Origin: a bacterium HR37
GTDB taxonomy: Bacteria > Desulfobacterota_D > UBA1144 > Nemesobacterales > CSP1-2
DNA: 34,801 bases
Assembly (NCBI GenBank): GCA_002898375.1
Contig: BEIN01000024.1
Coordinates: 1 to 34,801 of the forward strand
Direction: 5' to 3'
Positions 18,259 through 23,988 of this stretch are shown in pieces (position 1 is the first letter of the stretch; the number at the start of each line of letters is the position of its first letter). The position numbers and the translations under genes were made by a program. Below the pieces are notes generated by a model that was given only the letters and a program-made list of their open reading frames with translations, made no database searches and was not told the origin of the DNA.

Positions 18259-19119
18259 ATGGGAAGACTTGAAAGGCTGTTAAATAAAGCTGATAGCTTT
18301 AAAGAAGCTGGAAGATACGAAGACGCACTTAAAGAACTCAGAAAGGCACTTAAGATAGCCCCCCATGATCCGGACGTATACCTGTCATTTGCCCTAACGT
18401 ATGATGCAATGGGAGAATTTGAAACCTCTGTTGCTTACTTTAAGAAGGCGGTTGAGCTAGACCCTGATGACTCATACATATGGACACAGTTTGGGATAAC
18501 ACTTGCACGTATGGGGCGATATAGCGATGCACTCTCTGTTTTTCAAAAGGCACTCGCAATAGAGCCAAAGTACATCGTGGCAAGATGGAACTTAGCCCTA
18601 ACCTACAGGGCACTTGGATGCTATGAGGATGCTCTTGCTGAACTTCAAACCTGCATCCACCTCGATCCCGACTCAGAGTATATAAAGGATGAGATACACT
18701 ACCAGCTAGGTCTTTGCTACTTTGATATGGGATGGACACTGGAGGCTCTAAGAGAATTTAAAAAGCACGTTGAGCTCTTTCCAGAAGATATATGGGCCCA
18801 TCTATCAATAGGGAACTGCTACCTAGACCTTGGATGGACAGACGAGTCCATAAACAAGTACAAGGAAATAATAAATGCCTATCCCGGCTTTATTCCAGCC
18901 TACAACTCCCTGGCGGTATCTCTTGCTGAGAAGGGATGGTATGATGAGGCCCTTGAGGTCCTTAGAAAAGCGCTTGAGATCGCCCCGGAGGATGAGTCAA
19001 TAAAGGATAACATCGACTACATCCAGTCCCTAAAGGACGATGAAGACGGCTTTAAGGGGATGCTTTTACTTACCTTAATACTTCAGTTTCTTAAAAAGAG
19101 ACAAATCTCAAAGGATTAG
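18259..19119 (+). CDS. Tetratricopeptide-repeat protein
   Basis: The 286-aa protein is built almost wholly of TPR units; repeats such as GRYEDALKELRKALKIAPHD, GEFETSVAYFKKAVELDPDD, GRYSDALSVFQKALAIEPKY, GCYEDALAELQTCIHLDPDS, GWTLEALREFKKHVELFPED, GWTDESINKYKEIINAYPG and GWYDEALEVLRKALEIAPED recur every 34 residues or so, followed by a short hydrophobic-basic tail. There is no signal peptide, so it is probably cytoplasmic and mediates protein-protein contacts. The partner is not known. Its stop codon overlaps the stop of the convergent permease gene by 4 bp. Confidence 0.88.
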   Translation: MGRLERLLNKADSFKEAGRYEDALKELRKALKIAPHDPDVYLSFALTYDAMGEFETSVAYFKKAVELDPDDSYIWTQFGITLARMGRYSDALSVFQKALAIEPKYIVARWNLALTYRALGCYEDALAELQTCIHLDPDSEYIKDEIHYQLGLCYFDMGWTLEALREFKKHVELFPEDIWAHLSIGNCYLDLGWTDESINKYKEIINAYPGFIPAYNSLAVSLAEKGWYDEALEVLRKALEIAPEDESIKDNIDYIQSLKDDEDGFKGMLLLTLILQFLKKRQISKD

Positions 19120-20657
19120 CCTGGATACTTCCTCTTACCCTGCTCCTCTAGAAGCGGCATGATATATACACTCTTTGCCACTGGATAAGGAATTCGGTAC
19201 TCGTTTTCATCTATCTCAATAACAAACACCCTATCCACATCGCTTCTCCCCTTTACCTTGACCCTTTTCTGGGGAAACATACCGATAGAGGCAAGGTACT
19301 TTAAAACACCCGGGTCATCATCATTTACCCAGATAACGATACCAGAGCTTCCCGGTTTTGCCTCTGCCAAGGAAAGCCCAGAAGGCTCCGAAAGGACCCC
19401 CTCTTTAGTCGGAATCGGGTGCCCGTGAGGGTCAACCCTTGGCTCACCAAGGATTGCCTCAAGTTGCTCGGTCATATCTTCGCTAATAACATGCTCAAGC
19501 CTTTCTGCCTCATCATGAACCTTATCCCAACCAAGGCCAGCCTCCTCGGTAAGAAAGAGCTCCCAGAGTCTGTGAGAGCGGATAACCTTTAGGGCCCTTT
19601 CCCTACCGCTTTCAGTTAAAATTAGTCCTCCGGCTTTATCCCTTTCAACAAGCCCCATGTTCTCAAGTTTTGCAATAACGTTTAGAGCTGAGGAAAGAGA
19701 AACACCTAGCCTCCTTGAGAGCTCTGATGGAGAGACCACTCCCCTTTCCCTCTGAAGGTGGTAAGCATGCTTTAGGTAGTCCTCAATAGTTGCCATTAGA
19801 TGAGCACGACGCTGTTTTAACCACCTTGGTATGATACCCCTTCTTGGTGAAACAAACATCGCCATAAGAAACAAACAGGTAGAGACAAGAACCATTGTAG
19901 GCCCTGAAGCAACATTTAGATAAAATGACATGTAAAGCCCACTTATGGCAGAAAACACACCAAAGAGGGTTGCAAGAACCATCATGGTAGAGAGCCTCTT
20001 TACAAGGAGAAACGCAGTAGCCCCGGGGGTTATAAGCATGGCTACAACAAGCACTATACCAACTGTCTGAAGGGAAGCAACAATCGTTAAAGATAGCAAG
20101 AACATAAGAAGGTAGTGAAGCAACTTAACGGGAAGACCAATGGCAGATGCCATGGTGGGGTCAAACGACCAGAGCATAAGCTCTTTAAAGAGAAGAAAAA
20201 CCACAAGAAGCACCACCACACCTGTTAGAGCAGTAATTACCAGATCACCCGTTGAGACCCCAAGCACATTGCCAAAGAGTATGTGGTAGAGATCAACACT
20301 TTTACTGCGTATTATACTCATAAGGAGTATCCCAAGAGCAAAGGCCCCTGTAAACATGATACCTATTGCCGCATCTTCCTTTATGCGGGCATTACGCTCA
20401 ACAAAGCCGATACCAAGTGCTGTAAGAACACCGGTTATAACAGCCCCCAAGAAGAAACTTGTACCTATCATGTACGCAAAAGCAACCCCCGGCAATACAG
20501 CATGGGATATGGCATCTCCAAGAAGTGCCCATCTCTTAACAAGCAGATAACAACTCAGGATACTGCATATAAGACCGACCATTATAGCAGCAAGAAGTGC
20601 CCGCTGCATAAACTCATAGTGAAAAGGTGCAACAAGGTACTCAAACAATACACTCAT
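19116..20657 (-). CDS. Metal ABC permease fused to a DtxR/MntR-type repressor
   Basis: One uninterrupted 513-aa frame joins two proteins. Residues 1-270 are an ABC-3 family permease for Mn/Zn/Fe with about eight hydrophobic segments and the family signatures LLGDAISHAVLPGVAFAY and GIVLVVAMLITPGATAFLL. From about 288 comes a full DtxR-type regulator: winged helix (TIEDYLKHAYHLQRERG, SPSELSRRLGVSLSSALNVI), dimer/metal domain (VIRSHRLWELFL, DKVHDEAERLEHVISEDM) and a C-terminal FeoA/SH3-like domain (residues 440-505). The position of DtxR Cys102 is Glu, as in MntR. Chlamydial YtgCR has the same architecture and is cleaved to free its repressor. Overlaps the ATPase stop as ATGA. Confidence 0.92.
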   Translation of the reverse strand: MSVLFEYLVAPFHYEFMQRALLAAIMVGLICSILSCYLLVKRWALLGDAISHAVLPGVAFAYMIGTSFFLGAVITGVLTALGIGFVERNARIKEDAAIGIMFTGAFALGILLMSIIRSKSVDLYHILFGNVLGVSTGDLVITALTGVVVLLVVFLLFKELMLWSFDPTMASAIGLPVKLLHYLLMFLLSLTIVASLQTVGIVLVVAMLITPGATAFLLVKRLSTMMVLATLFGVFSAISGLYMSFYLNVASGPTMVLVSTCLFLMAMFVSPRRGIIPRWLKQRRAHLMATIEDYLKHAYHLQRERGVVSPSELSRRLGVSLSSALNVIAKLENMGLVERDKAGGLILTESGRERALKVIRSHRLWELFLTEEAGLGWDKVHDEAERLEHVISEDMTEQLEAILGEPRVDPHGHPIPTKEGVLSEPSGLSLAEAKPGSSGIVIWVNDDDPGVLKYLASIGMFPQKRVKVKGRSDVDRVFVIEIDENEYRIPYPVAKSVYIMPLLEEQGKRKYPG

Positions 20658-21454
20658 TTCCCCACCACCATCCTCTGACCAAGTGATTCCAAAATAGCAA
20701 GACGCCCCCCATAGGTCTTTCTAAGGAGTTCGGGGGTAAAAACCTCTCTTGCAGGACCATAAGCTATTAGCCTTTGATTTATTAAAATAAGCGAATCGTA
20801 GTAATTTATAGCGTTTCCAAGGTCATGGTTTACAACCAAAACCGTCTTACCCTCACTCTTAAGCTCCCTCATAAGGGAGAATATTGCCTGTTCCGTTGCA
20901 GCATCTACACCCACAAAGGGCTCATCAAGAAGAAGTATTTGAGCTTCCTGTGCCAGCGCCCTGGCCAGAAACACACGCTGTTGCTGTCCACCAGAGAGCT
21001 CTCCAATCTGGCGGTCTTTGTAATCGCTCATCTCTACCTGCTTAAGGCAGCGATCAACTACCTCGTAGTCTACCTTTCTTGGTCTTCTAATCCACCCTAT
21101 ATGGGGATACCTTCCCATCATAACCACATCCGAAACCACAATTGGATAATCCCAATCAACAAGCTCTTTCTGTGGAACGTAAGCCATCAGCCTTCTGCTC
21201 TTTTCCACAGGATTGCCGAAAATCAAAATCCTTCCCCTATCAAGAGGTAGCAGCTTCATTATCGCTTTAAGAAGAGTTGTCTTTCCAGCACCATTTGGAC
21301 CCACAATACCAACCACCTGTCCCGGTGGTATATCAAGGGTAATCCCGATTATTGCGGGTTTGGTATCGTATGATACCGTTACGTTCTCCAGACTGATTGC
21401 ATACTGTTTGTATGATTCGGTATCCACATCCAGCTCCCTATTTTTTTCCAACAT
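20654..21454 (-). CDS. Metal ABC transporter ATP-binding protein
   Basis: The cytoplasmic ATPase of the Mn/Zn/Fe uptake system. Walker A is GPNGAGKTTLLKAI, the signature is LSGGQQQRVFLARALAQEAQ, Walker B is ILLLDEPFVGVD and the switch His is in VVNHDL. MAYVPQKELVDWDYPIVVSD is the Q-loop region typical of MntB/ZnuC/TroB. The ATG at 21454 has a GGAGGGG ribosome binding site 6 nt upstream and is preferred to a TTG at 21469; it overlaps the binding-protein gene by 17 nt and ends with an ATGA overlap to the permease. Confidence 0.95.
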   Translation of the reverse strand: MLEKNRELDVDTESYKQYAISLENVTVSYDTKPAIIGITLDIPPGQVVGIVGPNGAGKTTLLKAIMKLLPLDRGRILIFGNPVEKSRRLMAYVPQKELVDWDYPIVVSDVVMMGRYPHIGWIRRPRKVDYEVVDRCLKQVEMSDYKDRQIGELSGGQQQRVFLARALAQEAQILLLDEPFVGVDAATEQAIFSLMRELKSEGKTVLVVNHDLGNAINYYDSLILINQRLIAYGPAREVFTPELLRKTYGGRLAILESLGQRMVVGK

Positions 21455-22379
21455 CTTCCACCCCTCCAAGTGCCTGAACTATAGACAAAACATTTGACCT
21501 CATCATGCCTATGTAGGTATCAGCTCCACTTCCAGGGGGGCCAAGGGAATCTCCATAGAGCTTCCTTCCAACCTTTACCCCGGCCTCCCTTGCAACCCTT
21601 TCCATGAGCTTTGGGTTAACCGTTGTTTCTATGAAAACCGCCGGAACCCTCTCCCTTCTGATTGCATCAATAAGCTGTGCTATCTCCTGTGCTGATGGTT
21701 CATCCTCTGTGCTTATGCCCCATATGGTTCCAACCACCTTAAATCCGTATCTCTGCCCAAAGTATCTGAATGCATCGTGTGTGGTAACAAGCTTTCTCCT
21801 TTGAGGAGGAATTGTCTCTACCTGCTCAAAAATCCACTTATCGAGTTTCTCAAGCTCTAAGAGATAACCTGCGGCATTTTCCCTGTATACCTGCTCGCCC
21901 TCTGGATCAAACTCAACCAGGGCATCACGGATGTTTCTTACATAACCCATGGCCTTTGTAACATCCATCCACAGATGCGGATCAGGATCGCCTCTTTCAT
22001 CCCTTATCGGTTCGAGGCCATCGGTTACAGCAACATAGGGCCTTGTTCCACCGGCATTTTTAAGTAGCTTCTCAAGCCACTTCTCAAGCCCCAATCCGTT
22101 AAAAAAGACTATATCGGATTCTGCTATCTTCTTTAAATCGCCAGGAACCGGTTCATAGGTATGAGGGTCACCTCCAATCGGCAAAAGGCTTATAACCTCA
22201 ACTCTCTCTCCAGCCACCTGAGCTACCATATCACCTATTATGTTTACAGTTGCAAGGGCTATCTTTTTATTTCCCTTAACCCCTTCCCTTCCCATATCCG
22301 AAAGACAGGAAACAAAAACAAAGAGAACCACCAAGGAAAAACCCCTTAAGATCCTTTTAAAAACACGCTCTTTATACAA
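21438..22379 (-). CDS. Metal-binding lipoprotein (ZnuA/TroA/MntA family)
   Basis: A 313-aa periplasmic binding protein of cluster A-I. A basic N-terminus and hydrophobic stretch end in VFVSC, a plausible lipobox with Cys25. Metal ligands are visible: His in GGDPHTYEP, His in PDPHLWMD, His in VTTHDAFRYF and Asp in the SGADTYIGMM region. There is no His-rich loop, which makes Mn or Fe as likely as Zn. The start is TTG with a CAGGAGG ribosome binding site 10 nt upstream. It overlaps the ATPase gene and follows the outer-membrane gene by 33 nt. Confidence 0.93.
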   Translation of the reverse strand: MYKERVFKRILRGFSLVVLFVFVSCLSDMGREGVKGNKKIALATVNIIGDMVAQVAGERVEVISLLPIGGDPHTYEPVPGDLKKIAESDIVFFNGLGLEKWLEKLLKNAGGTRPYVAVTDGLEPIRDERGDPDPHLWMDVTKAMGYVRNIRDALVEFDPEGEQVYRENAAGYLLELEKLDKWIFEQVETIPPQRRKLVTTHDAFRYFGQRYGFKVVGTIWGISTEDEPSAQEIAQLIDAIRRERVPAVFIETTVNPKLMERVAREAGVKVGRKLYGDSLGPPGSGADTYIGMMRSNVLSIVQALGGVEDVGKK

Positions 22380-22412
22380 CTTATCCAGACCTCCTGGTAA
22401 GAGATTCCACCC

Positions 22413-23198
22413 CTAGAGAACACTTAGGAAAAACGTAAAAGCCGTTAAAAGAGAAGTCTCTTTTTCCGCATTGCGCGTATACACGTCCCTGCTAACCCCA
22501 AAAATCAAAGTAAGCACCCTGTTTACAGGGGAGGTAAAACCCAGAGTCAGGCCAAATGCTGAAATACCCTTTTCATCATAGGGTTTTTCAAGTGAATAAT
22601 GGGCTTCAAAAACCGGTTGAAACCATGGGAAGATAAAGTAGCCAAACCCAACATCCGCAACAAAACCCACATCCTCTGTTTCAATAAAGGCAACTACGAA
22701 ATCTGCATCCATTGAGAATGCCTCGGTAAAATCAGCTGTAAGCACCAAACCCAGAACCTCAAATACCCACCCAGAGTCATTACCGGTAGGAAAGGTAATA
22801 CCCCCCTGGTAAGCAAGGGAAAAAGGAATCTTGCCGTAGTCTTCAAGGAATCTAAACTTTACCCCTGCTCCTATATCACCAAACCCTGTTTCCCCATCCA
22901 CCTGATCAGAATCCTCAAAATCGAGGTATCCAATGTTTACCCCAACCTCAAGGTTTTTAAGAACGCCAAAAGTAACCCTGTTTGAAGCAGAAAAACTAAG
23001 TACGCTGTCCTTACCGGTTACCAGTCCAAAAGAGGGCTCAACCTCCAGATGTCCTGGTGGAACCGTATCCACGCTTGGAACTATAACCTTGGAATTAGAT
23101 ATACCATCCACTGCTATGGCCTTTTTATGCTCCATAAAAAGCAGAGCAACCACAAAAGTTATCAAAAATCCCCGAGTACACAGGTTCTGGATTCTCAT
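22413..23198 (-). CDS. Outer-membrane beta-barrel protein in the metal-uptake operon
   Basis: The 261-aa protein has a signal peptide (hydrophobic residues 10-22, cleavage probably after KKAIA) and then alternating hydrophobic/polar strands separated by Gly/Asp turns (for example LEVGVNIGYLDFED, DIGAGVKFRFLEDY, FEVLGLVLTADFTE), ending in a hydrophobic C-terminal strand FTFFLSVL. It resembles the broad MetA/phenol-type putative transporter barrels. It lies inside the operon between the free repressor and the binding lipoprotein, so it may let the metal, or a chelate of it, cross the outer membrane. That role is inferred from position. A GAGGAG ribosome binding site precedes the ATG. Confidence 0.8.
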   Translation of the reverse strand: MRIQNLCTRGFLITFVVALLFMEHKKAIAVDGISNSKVIVPSVDTVPPGHLEVEPSFGLVTGKDSVLSFSASNRVTFGVLKNLEVGVNIGYLDFEDSDQVDGETGFGDIGAGVKFRFLEDYGKIPFSLAYQGGITFPTGNDSGWVFEVLGLVLTADFTEAFSMDADFVVAFIETEDVGFVADVGFGYFIFPWFQPVFEAHYSLEKPYDEKGISAFGLTLGFTSPVNRVLTLIFGVSRDVYTRNAEKETSLLTAFTFFLSVL

Positions 23199-23234
23199 TA
23201 TACGGCTTCTCCTCTAAGACTACGTCCTTTAATA

Positions 23235-23912
23235 TCATCGCTCTTTGCTAACCTGACTAACATAGATATCCTTTGCCACACTGACCGGCAAACGGTGTTC
23301 AGAGGAGCCAACCCTGATAAATATGTCTCCTCCAAAAGGGGTTTTATCCCTTACATTAACACTTACCCCAGGGAAAAGCCCAAGTTCAGCCATATAGCGA
23401 AGTTTGTCCGAATCCGTATCGCTTACACAGTTTATAACCACTGTATCCCCAACCTCCGTATCAGCCAGAGACAGAGTCTCCTTAAACCCCTCAATCCTTC
23501 CATCCTTTGTAGGTATTGGGTCCCCGTGCGGGTCGGTCTTTGGATATCCCAGAACACAGTCTATTCTGTCAAGGATCTCATCCGAAATTACATGCTCAAG
23601 TTTTTCCGCCTCAACATGGACCTTATCCCACTCAAGCCCTAGAATCTCATTTAGAAACAGCTCAACAAGACGATGACGTCTTATAACCTTAAGGGCCATT
23701 TGCTCCCCCTTAGCCGTTAAAATAACGCCGTGATAGGATATGTGTTTAAGGAGTTTTTTCCTGGCAAGCTTCTTTATCATTGCCGTAACGGTTGCGTTTG
23801 AAAGCCCAAGCTTCTCTGCAATCGCAGATGTTGTTACCCTTCCCTGTCTTCTTTGAAGCTTATAGATTGCCTTTAGGTAATCCTCTACGGTAGGGCTAAT
23901 TGTTTGGTTCAT
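23235..23912 (-). CDS. DtxR/MntR-family metal-dependent repressor
   Basis: A 225-aa free repressor with winged helix (SPTVEDYLKAIYKLQRRQGR, TSAIAEKLGLSNATVTAMI), dimer/metal domain (VIRRHRLVELFL, DKVHVEAEKLEHVISDEI) and a C-terminal FeoA/SH3-like domain (residues 155-220). The Asp of VEDY and Glu at the place of DtxR Cys102 match the MntR ligand set, so Mn(II) is a likely co-repressor, although Fe or Zn cannot be excluded. It is the first gene of the operon, and its promoter carries a 16-bp operator. The whole protein aligns with the C-terminal half of the permease fusion, so the operon encodes two related repressors. Confidence 0.93.
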   Translation of the reverse strand: MNQTISPTVEDYLKAIYKLQRRQGRVTTSAIAEKLGLSNATVTAMIKKLARKKLLKHISYHGVILTAKGEQMALKVIRRHRLVELFLNEILGLEWDKVHVEAEKLEHVISDEILDRIDCVLGYPKTDPHGDPIPTKDGRIEGFKETLSLADTEVGDTVVINCVSDTDSDKLRYMAELGLFPGVSVNVRDKTPFGGDIFIRVGSSEHRLPVSVAKDIYVSQVSKER

Positions 23913-23918
23913 CTAAAT
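23908..23918. repeat. Second copy of the operator half-sequence at the dtxR start codon
   Basis: TTCATCTAAAT here is identical to 23953-23963 inside the operator. This copy overlaps the start codon, and an imperfect TTTTAG half-site follows. It could be a second, weaker binding site. Confidence 0.5.
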
Positions 23919-23945: not shown

Positions 23946-23961
23946 TTTAGATTCATCTAAA
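23946..23961. promoter_or_regulatory. DtxR/MntR-type operator
   Basis: A perfect 7-2-7 palindrome, TTTAGAT-TC-ATCTAAA. It touches the -10 and covers the predicted transcription start of the metal-uptake operon, so binding would block initiation. Confidence 0.75.
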
Positions 23962-23988
23962 TTATAGAAAGAAAAAAAGAGATGTCAA
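23961..23988 (-). promoter_or_regulatory. Consensus sigma-70 promoter of the metal-uptake operon
   Basis: On the minus strand TTGACA (23983-23988) and TATAAT (23961-23966) both match consensus exactly, 16 nt apart. Such a strong promoter implies tight repression by metal under replete conditions. Confidence 0.85.

What the first reader, a model, noticed from the sequence alone, without database searches (positions are those of the whole stretch)
19116..23912. Two DtxR-type repressors in one metal operon, one fused to the permease
A free repressor heads the operon and a second complete repressor is the C-terminal half of the permease. Both have MntR-like ligands (Glu at the DtxR Cys102 place). 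In Chlamydia the YtgCR fusion is cleaved to release a repressor; a membrane-tethered form could couple transport to gene control. Having both a free and a fused copy in the same operon is unusual as far as I know.
Basis: partly seen in the sequence, partly recalled or inferred. Interest (0 to 1): 0.6.

Follow-up and report, generated by a model that had tools for sequence, protein, structure and literature searches.

The report
Manganese importer with built-in metal sensor
A manganese-import operon carries two copies of the same kind of metal-sensing protein: a free one that almost certainly switches the operon off, and one welded to the importer itself; in related bacteria the welded copy keeps its metal-binding site but loses its DNA-reading part, so it probably senses metal to control the pump and not the genes.

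Summary
Window 23912-23235(-) is a complete free DtxR/MntR-type repressor. Window 20657-19116(-) is one 513-aa ORF: ABC-3 permease, HTH, metal-binding/dimerisation domain, FeoA domain. Both copies have Asp/Glu (MntR-like) ligands. They are the only two such proteins in the genome and share one operon. The fusion recurs in other phyla, so it is not a sequence error.

The claim that free plus fused is unusual fails. The same operon (free dtxR, SBP, ATPase, permease-DtxR-FeoA) occurs in an Actinomycetota MAG and all 7 members of another family. Of 38 fusion loci, 18 have a free copy in the operon or divergently beside it.

Across 44 fused proteins the metal-binding domain is detected in 44 but the DtxR DNA-binding domain in only 3, against 25 of 25 free copies. 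In close pairs the fused HTH has dN/dS 0.34-1.13, the fused metal domain 0-0.10. A perfect sigma-70 promoter abuts a palindromic operator conserved at free-dtxR operons.

Best reading: the free copy is the operon's Mn repressor; the fused domain is a cytoplasmic metal sensor feeding back on transport. The window's fused HTH is the least decayed, so DNA binding is not excluded. Permease-DtxR fusions are known (Chlamydia YtgCR); the sensor role is untested.

The parts
23961..23988 (-). sigma-70-type promoter TTGACA-16-TATAAT
   Evidence: 12 of 12 consensus bases; only such site in the 190-base leader, 0.5 expected in shuffles
23946..23961 (-). operator 1, TTTAGATGAATCTAAA, perfect 7+7 palindrome abutting the -10 hexamer
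   Evidence: only exact match in the genome; TTTAG-N6-CTAAA recurs before dtxR or operon heads in other genomes
23902..23917 (-). operator 2, TTTAGATGAACCAAAC, 13/16 copy of operator 1, 44 bp downstream, over the start codon of free dtxR
   Evidence: 23-nt direct repeat, 87% identical
23235..23912 (-). free DtxR/MntR-type repressor (HTH, metal/dimerisation, FeoA), 225 aa
   Evidence: 67% identical to own-family G003 copy
22413..23198 (-). porin-like outer-membrane protein (PF13557), 261 aa; candidate outer-membrane metal channel
   Evidence: adjacent to dtxR in own-order relatives
21438..22379 (-). Mn/Fe-type periplasmic binding protein (PF01297)
   Evidence: best solved relatives are MntA/PsaA; aligned His, His, Glu, Asp
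20654..21469 (-). ABC ATPase (MntA/SitB-like)
19116..20657 (-). permease-DtxR-FeoA fusion, 513 aa
19851..20618 (-). ABC-3 permease domain of the fusion (residues 14-269)
   Evidence: 71% identical to L103 permease of another phylum
19743..19835 (-). basic helix (residues 275-305) running from the permease end into DtxR helix 1
   Evidence: structure model, one continuous helix; pLDDT over 90 from about residue 290, 60-74 at its start
19623..19802 (-). winged-helix domain of the fusion (residues 286-345), recognition helix altered
   Evidence: Pfam 53.7 bits; DtxR positions 41-44 read A-L-N-V where free copies read V-T-x-M
19407..19616 (-). metal-binding/dimerisation domain of the fusion (residues 348-417), all ligands kept
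19161..19373 (-). FeoA/SH3-like domain of the fusion (residues 429-499)

Best explanation
A two-level manganese feedback operon. SHOWN by sequence: one perfect promoter with a palindromic operator heads dtxR, porin, binding protein, ATPase and permease-DtxR; the binding protein and both DtxR modules have Mn/Fe-type ligands; the fused domain belongs to an old lineage of permease-fused DtxR domains in which metal ligands are invariant or nearly so and DNA-reading residues are not. INFERRED: (1) the free MntR-type protein, when loaded with Mn(II), binds the two operators and shuts the operon; (2) the fused domain lies on the cytoplasmic side just below the permease, binds Mn(II) when the cytosol is replete, and the metal-driven change (possibly dimerisation with a second copy) holds the transporter in a resting state through the connecting helix, i.e. 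trans-inhibition by a domain borrowed from a repressor. The winged helix survives mainly as scaffold. In this genome the fused HTH is still repressor-like, so some DNA contact may persist.
For: Metal ligands: in 14 permease-DtxR-FeoA fusions D10, H79, E83, H98, E105, H106 are 14/14 and position 102 is E/D/H; in 30 permease-DtxR fusions E83, E105 and H106 are 30/30 and H79 29/30. DNA-binding Pfam domain found in 3 of 44 fused against 25 of 25 free; metal domain in 44 of 44 and 25 of 25. In 11 genomes with both copies, recognition-helix identity between genomes is lower for fused than free in 55 of 55 pairs (0.29 v 0.69), metal domain nearly equal (0.56 v 0.64). dN/dS in six pairs from one family: fused HTH 0.34-1.13, fused metal domain 0-0.10, free HTH 0.07-0.22, permease 0.07-0.14. 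Fused domains separate from all free ones even with the HTH left out, 96/92 and 96/93. Free-copy operator conserved: TTTAG-N6-CTAAA 25 times in own-order loci against 0.15 in shuffles, nearly all just upstream of dtxR or the porin gene; it also heads operons whose free regulator lies elsewhere in the genome (L079, L109, L130). C-terminal half modelled with pLDDT about 90 and matching Mn repressor 5zr6, TM 0.91. Precedent for fused feedback domains in ABC importers: MetNI, ModABC (PMC10710835).
Against: No transport or binding data. The window's own fused HTH is the best preserved of the set, so family-level decay may not describe it. In Chlamydia the fused domain is reported to be cut off and to repress genes (PMC6504234; PMC5599777). 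Three near-complete genomes have only the fused copy (G173, G689, G618) and would otherwise lack a DtxR. In several two-permease systems only one partner carries the metal domain (L081, L127, L128, L134), so a within-transporter dimer cannot be general. The membrane half of the model is poor (pLDDT about 40-60), so the docking is unknown.
Confidence: 0.55

Rival explanations
1. Second repressor: the fused domain binds the operon's operators, either as a membrane-tethered repressor or after proteolytic release as in YtgCR.
For: Pfam HTH 53.7 bits, above cut-off; complete DtxR fold in the model; two operators 44 bp apart could serve two regulators; YtgR precedent (PMC6504234).
Against: Positions conserved in free copies are changed (V41 to A, S/T42 to L, M44 to V, wing Tyr lost); relatives mostly have no detectable DtxR HTH and relaxed selection on it; the free copy already explains the operators.
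Confidence: 0.2
2. Anti-repressor: the fused domain pairs with free MntR through the shared dimerisation surface and holds it at the membrane, linking transporter number or state to gene control.
For: Dimerisation domain is the conserved part; free and fused copies recur together (18 of 38 loci); fusions on only one of two permeases leave a free partner surface.
Against: Many fusions have no neighbouring free copy and three near-complete genomes have none at all; fused and free dimerisation domains are anciently diverged.
Confidence: 0.13
3. Metal hand-off: the fused domain is a cytoplasmic exit site that receives Mn from the permease and passes it to free MntR or other proteins, without gating transport.
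For: Invariant metal ligands on a domain attached to the permease.
Against: Does not explain retention of the whole dimerisation fold and FeoA domain; no precedent known to me among DtxR proteins.
Confidence: 0.07
4. Structural relic: the fused domain is a remnant without function.
For: The HTH decays; some relatives keep only about 95 aa of winged helix.
Against: The metal domain is under purifying selection as strong as or stronger than the permease itself and its ligands are conserved across phyla.
Confidence: 0.05

Closest known systems
Chlamydia YtgCR (permease-DtxR fusion)
   Same: ABC-3 permease with a C-terminal DtxR-type domain in a metal-uptake operon; orthologous fusions reported in 11 phyla (PMC5599777).
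   Different: YtgR is described as the only identified iron-dependent regulator of Chlamydia and is cut off to repress genes (PMC6504234). Here a free repressor heads the operon, a FeoA domain is present, and the fused family has mostly lost canonical DNA-reading residues. YtgCR itself was not in the data set, so its HTH could not be scored alongside.
MntR/ScaR/SloR/DR2539-type Mn repressors
   Same: Both DtxR modules have this fold and ligand set.
   Different: One is part of a membrane protein and its recognition helix is altered.
PsaBC / MntBC / SitCD manganese importers
   Same: Permease, ATPase and binding protein match at the sequence level.
   Different: The solved PsaB permease ends after the last membrane helix; this one continues for about 240 residues.
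MetNI and ModABC importers with C-terminal trans-inhibition domains
   Same: Extra cytoplasmic substrate-sensing domain on an ABC importer (review PMC10710835). Resemblance in working principle only.
   Different: In MetNI the domain sits on the ATPase and is an unrelated fold; here it is on the permease and is a repressor fold. Not a family member.

Membership tests
Permease-DtxR fusions (YtgCR kind) | ABC-3 permease and DtxR metal/dimerisation domain in one ORF | tested here: met
Permease-DtxR fusions (YtgCR kind) | DtxR domain released by cleavage | not testable with these tools
   needs immunoblot
Permease-DtxR fusions (YtgCR kind) | Released domain represses its own operon | tested here: inconclusive
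   HTH recognisable but conserved residues changed; no binding data
MntR-type DtxR repressors (free copy) | HTH, metal/dimerisation domain, Asp/Glu/Glu/His ligands | tested here: met
MntR-type DtxR repressors (free copy) | Palindromic operator at own promoter | tested here: met
   (sequence only; binding not shown)
MntR-type DtxR repressors (fused copy) | Conserved recognition helix and wing | tested here: not met
   fold present, key residues differ
Mn/Fe cluster A-I ABC importers | Binding protein with His, His, Glu, Asp ligands | tested here: met
   aligned to MntA/PsaA; ligand positions from established knowledge of PsaA
Trans-inhibited ABC importers | Substrate binding on the cytoplasmic side stops transport | not testable with these tools
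   needs transport assay

The most novel reading that the evidence does not exclude
A widespread family of Mn/Fe ABC importers carries a DtxR repressor turned into a transport valve: metal sensing kept, DNA reading lost, giving post-translational feedback by the same sensor fold that controls the genes. Chlamydia's cleaved repressor would then be a special case.
Probability: 0.45. Interest if true: 0.78.

Novelty: new variant of a known kind. Interest (0 to 1): 0.52.

Why it matters
Control of bacterial Mn/Fe import is described mainly as transcriptional. If the fused domain gates the pump, a DNA-binding repressor fold has become a metal valve conserved in many phyla, and fusions now read as repressors would need re-reading. 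The free-plus-fused operon gives a built-in control pair for testing it.

Tried and rejected
Sequence error creating the fusion: rejected, same architecture in many independent genomes. Recent duplication of the window's own dtxR: not favoured; the fused domain groups with other fused domains (96/93), and holding it with the own-family free copies costs 10.9 log units, p-AU 0.054, borderline. Simple rule 'no free copy, so HTH intact': not seen; fused-only genomes G173, G689, G618 also have poor HTH scores. A genome-wide regulon for the operator: none found; at two mismatches hits do not exceed the reversed control (16 v 18). The 2012 PNAS paper on YtgCR is not held, so the '11 phyla' statement is taken from a review. 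Paper searches for a described free-plus-fused operon or a non-repressor role of a permease-fused DtxR found none, in an open-licence library only. Naming the organism was not possible.

Full report
CHECK OF THE OBSERVATION. The region is one minus-strand operon: free dtxR (23912-23235), a porin-like gene (23198-22413), a metal-binding protein (22379-21438), an ATPase (21469-20654) and the fusion (20657-19116), with short gaps or overlaps. The 513-aa fusion has ABC-3, DtxR HTH, DtxR metal/dimerisation and FeoA domains, all above Pfam cut-offs; the free 225-aa protein has the same three DtxR domains. The nearest solved relatives are the PsaB permease (7kyp) and Mn-dependent repressors (5zr4, ScaR, DR2539). 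These are the only two DtxR-type metal domains in the genome. The binding protein aligns with MntA/PsaA and keeps their His-His-Glu-Asp positions, which by established knowledge of PsaA points to Mn/Fe and not Zn.

REGULATORY SITE. Upstream of the free gene is a perfect TTGACA-16-TATAAT promoter. A perfect palindrome TTTAGATGAATCTAAA begins at the last base of the -10 box, and a 13/16 copy lies 44 bp downstream over the start codon. It is the only exact match in the genome. TTTAG-N6-CTAAA stands just before free dtxR genes, porin genes or operon heads in many other genomes; in own-order loci there are 25 exact matches against 0.15 in shuffles, and 11 against 0.35 in the wider set, 10 of them at operon heads. 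Several transporter operons without a neighbouring free gene also carry it (L079, L109, L130), and their genomes hold a free DtxR elsewhere. So the free protein is very probably the operon's repressor.

IS FREE PLUS FUSED UNUSUAL? No. The Actinomycetota MAG locus L003 has free dtxR, binding protein, ATPase and permease-DtxR-FeoA in that order. All seven genomes of family f83, in another phylum, have the same four-gene operon. Among fusions without FeoA, L080, L085 and L126 have the free gene in the operon and L088, L128, L129, L135, L136, L137 have one divergently beside it. In all, 9 of 14 loci of the first kind and 9 of 24 of the second have a neighbouring free copy; three of the 24 are cut by contig ends. 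In the window's own order the permeases come in pairs, each with only about 95 aa of winged helix at the end, and the operon also holds a free dtxR, often next to the porin gene. Permease-DtxR fusions as such are known: YtgCR of Chlamydia, with orthologous fusions reported in 11 phyla (PMC5599777).

WHAT THE FUSED DOMAIN IS. I compared 44 fused and 25 free proteins. Pfam finds the metal domain in all, but the DtxR DNA-binding domain in only 3 fused against 25 free. In free copies the recognition helix reads mostly P-A-S-V-T-x-M with a Tyr in the wing; in fused copies these positions are scrambled, while metal ligands are invariant or nearly so. A fused-specific Trp (HRLWE) is present in 39 of 44, hinting at an interface of its own. 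In 11 genomes with both copies, recognition-helix identity is lower for fused than free in all 55 pairs, whereas the metal domain is about equally conserved. In six pairs within one family, dN/dS is 0.34-1.13 for the fused HTH, 0-0.10 for the fused metal domain, 0.07-0.22 for the free HTH and 0.07-0.14 for the permease. These pairs are not independent and the method is simple (Nei-Gojobori), but the contrast is large and in one direction. This is the pattern of a domain kept for sensing metal and released from reading DNA. A caution: failing to match the Pfam HTH is not proof of no DNA binding, since Chlamydia's fused domain is reported to bind DNA and could not be scored here.

THE WINDOW COPY. 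It belongs to the fused lineage, not to the free one, even when the HTH is left out of the tree (96/92; 96/93); derivation from the own-family free copies is not favoured (p-AU 0.054, borderline). It is, however, the least decayed: 60 bits on an HTH model from free copies, where other fused copies score -0.5 to 41 and full-length free MntR-type copies 81-119. So this copy is the best candidate in the set for residual DNA binding, and also the best place to test the two roles against each other.

ORIGIN. The operon is a mosaic. Free dtxR is 67% and the porin 56% identical to genes of the same family (G003), but permease and binding protein are 71% identical to family f83 of another phylum and only 35% and 43% to own-family genes. 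The permease tree places the window inside the fused clade of other phyla. A horizontally acquired transporter, with its sensor, was probably set behind a native repressor and porin.

STRUCTURE. The model of the fusion is poor in the membrane half (few relatives could be used) but confident (pLDDT about 90) for most of residues 290-500. A single helix, 275-305, runs from the end of the permease into the first DtxR helix, a link suited to passing a conformational change. The C-terminal half matches the Mn-bound repressor 5zr6 at TM 0.91. A cytoplasmic location is inferred from the many Arg/Lys after the last membrane helix.

MECHANISM. Shown: anatomy, ligand conservation, HTH decay in relatives, conserved operator. 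Inferred: the free protein represses; the fused domain senses cytoplasmic Mn and slows the pump. Rivals are a second repressor, an anti-repressor that captures the free protein, a metal hand-off site, and a relic; the last is unlikely given the selection on the metal domain. Feedback domains on ABC importers exist (MetNI, ModABC), but a recent review of such controls does not mention DtxR (PMC10710835).

VERDICT. Real feature; the stated novelty (free plus fused) is ordinary for this family; the better question is why the fused copies keep metal sensing and lose DNA reading. New variant of a known kind; interest 0.52.

Noticed in passing
window 22413-23198 (-); L025, L026, L028, L030, L031, L033, L035, L036, L039, L096: A porin-like PF13557 protein sits beside dtxR in the Mn operon, in the window's order often at its head with its own TTTAG-N6-CTAAA operator; candidate outer-membrane Mn channel.
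   Followed up: partly
window 19116-22379: Binding protein and permease are about 71% identical to a family of another phylum, while dtxR and porin are native: a mosaic operon probably made by horizontal transfer.
   Followed up: partly
L024, L029, L032, L037, L096 and other own-order loci: Paired permeases end in about 95 aa of winged helix without the DtxR metal domain, in operons with a free dtxR: the opposite loss to that seen in the full fusions.
   Followed up: partly
fused proteins, window fusion residue W365 (about 19563-19565): Trp in the HRLWE motif is nearly specific to fused DtxR domains (39 of 44); free copies have Leu, Ile or Val there. Possible contact with the permease or ATPase.
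   Followed up: no
L084 (G173), L134 (G689), L139 (G618): Near-complete genomes whose only DtxR-type protein is the permease-fused one, as in Chlamydia, yet with a poorly scoring HTH; how their uptake genes are controlled is open.
   Followed up: no
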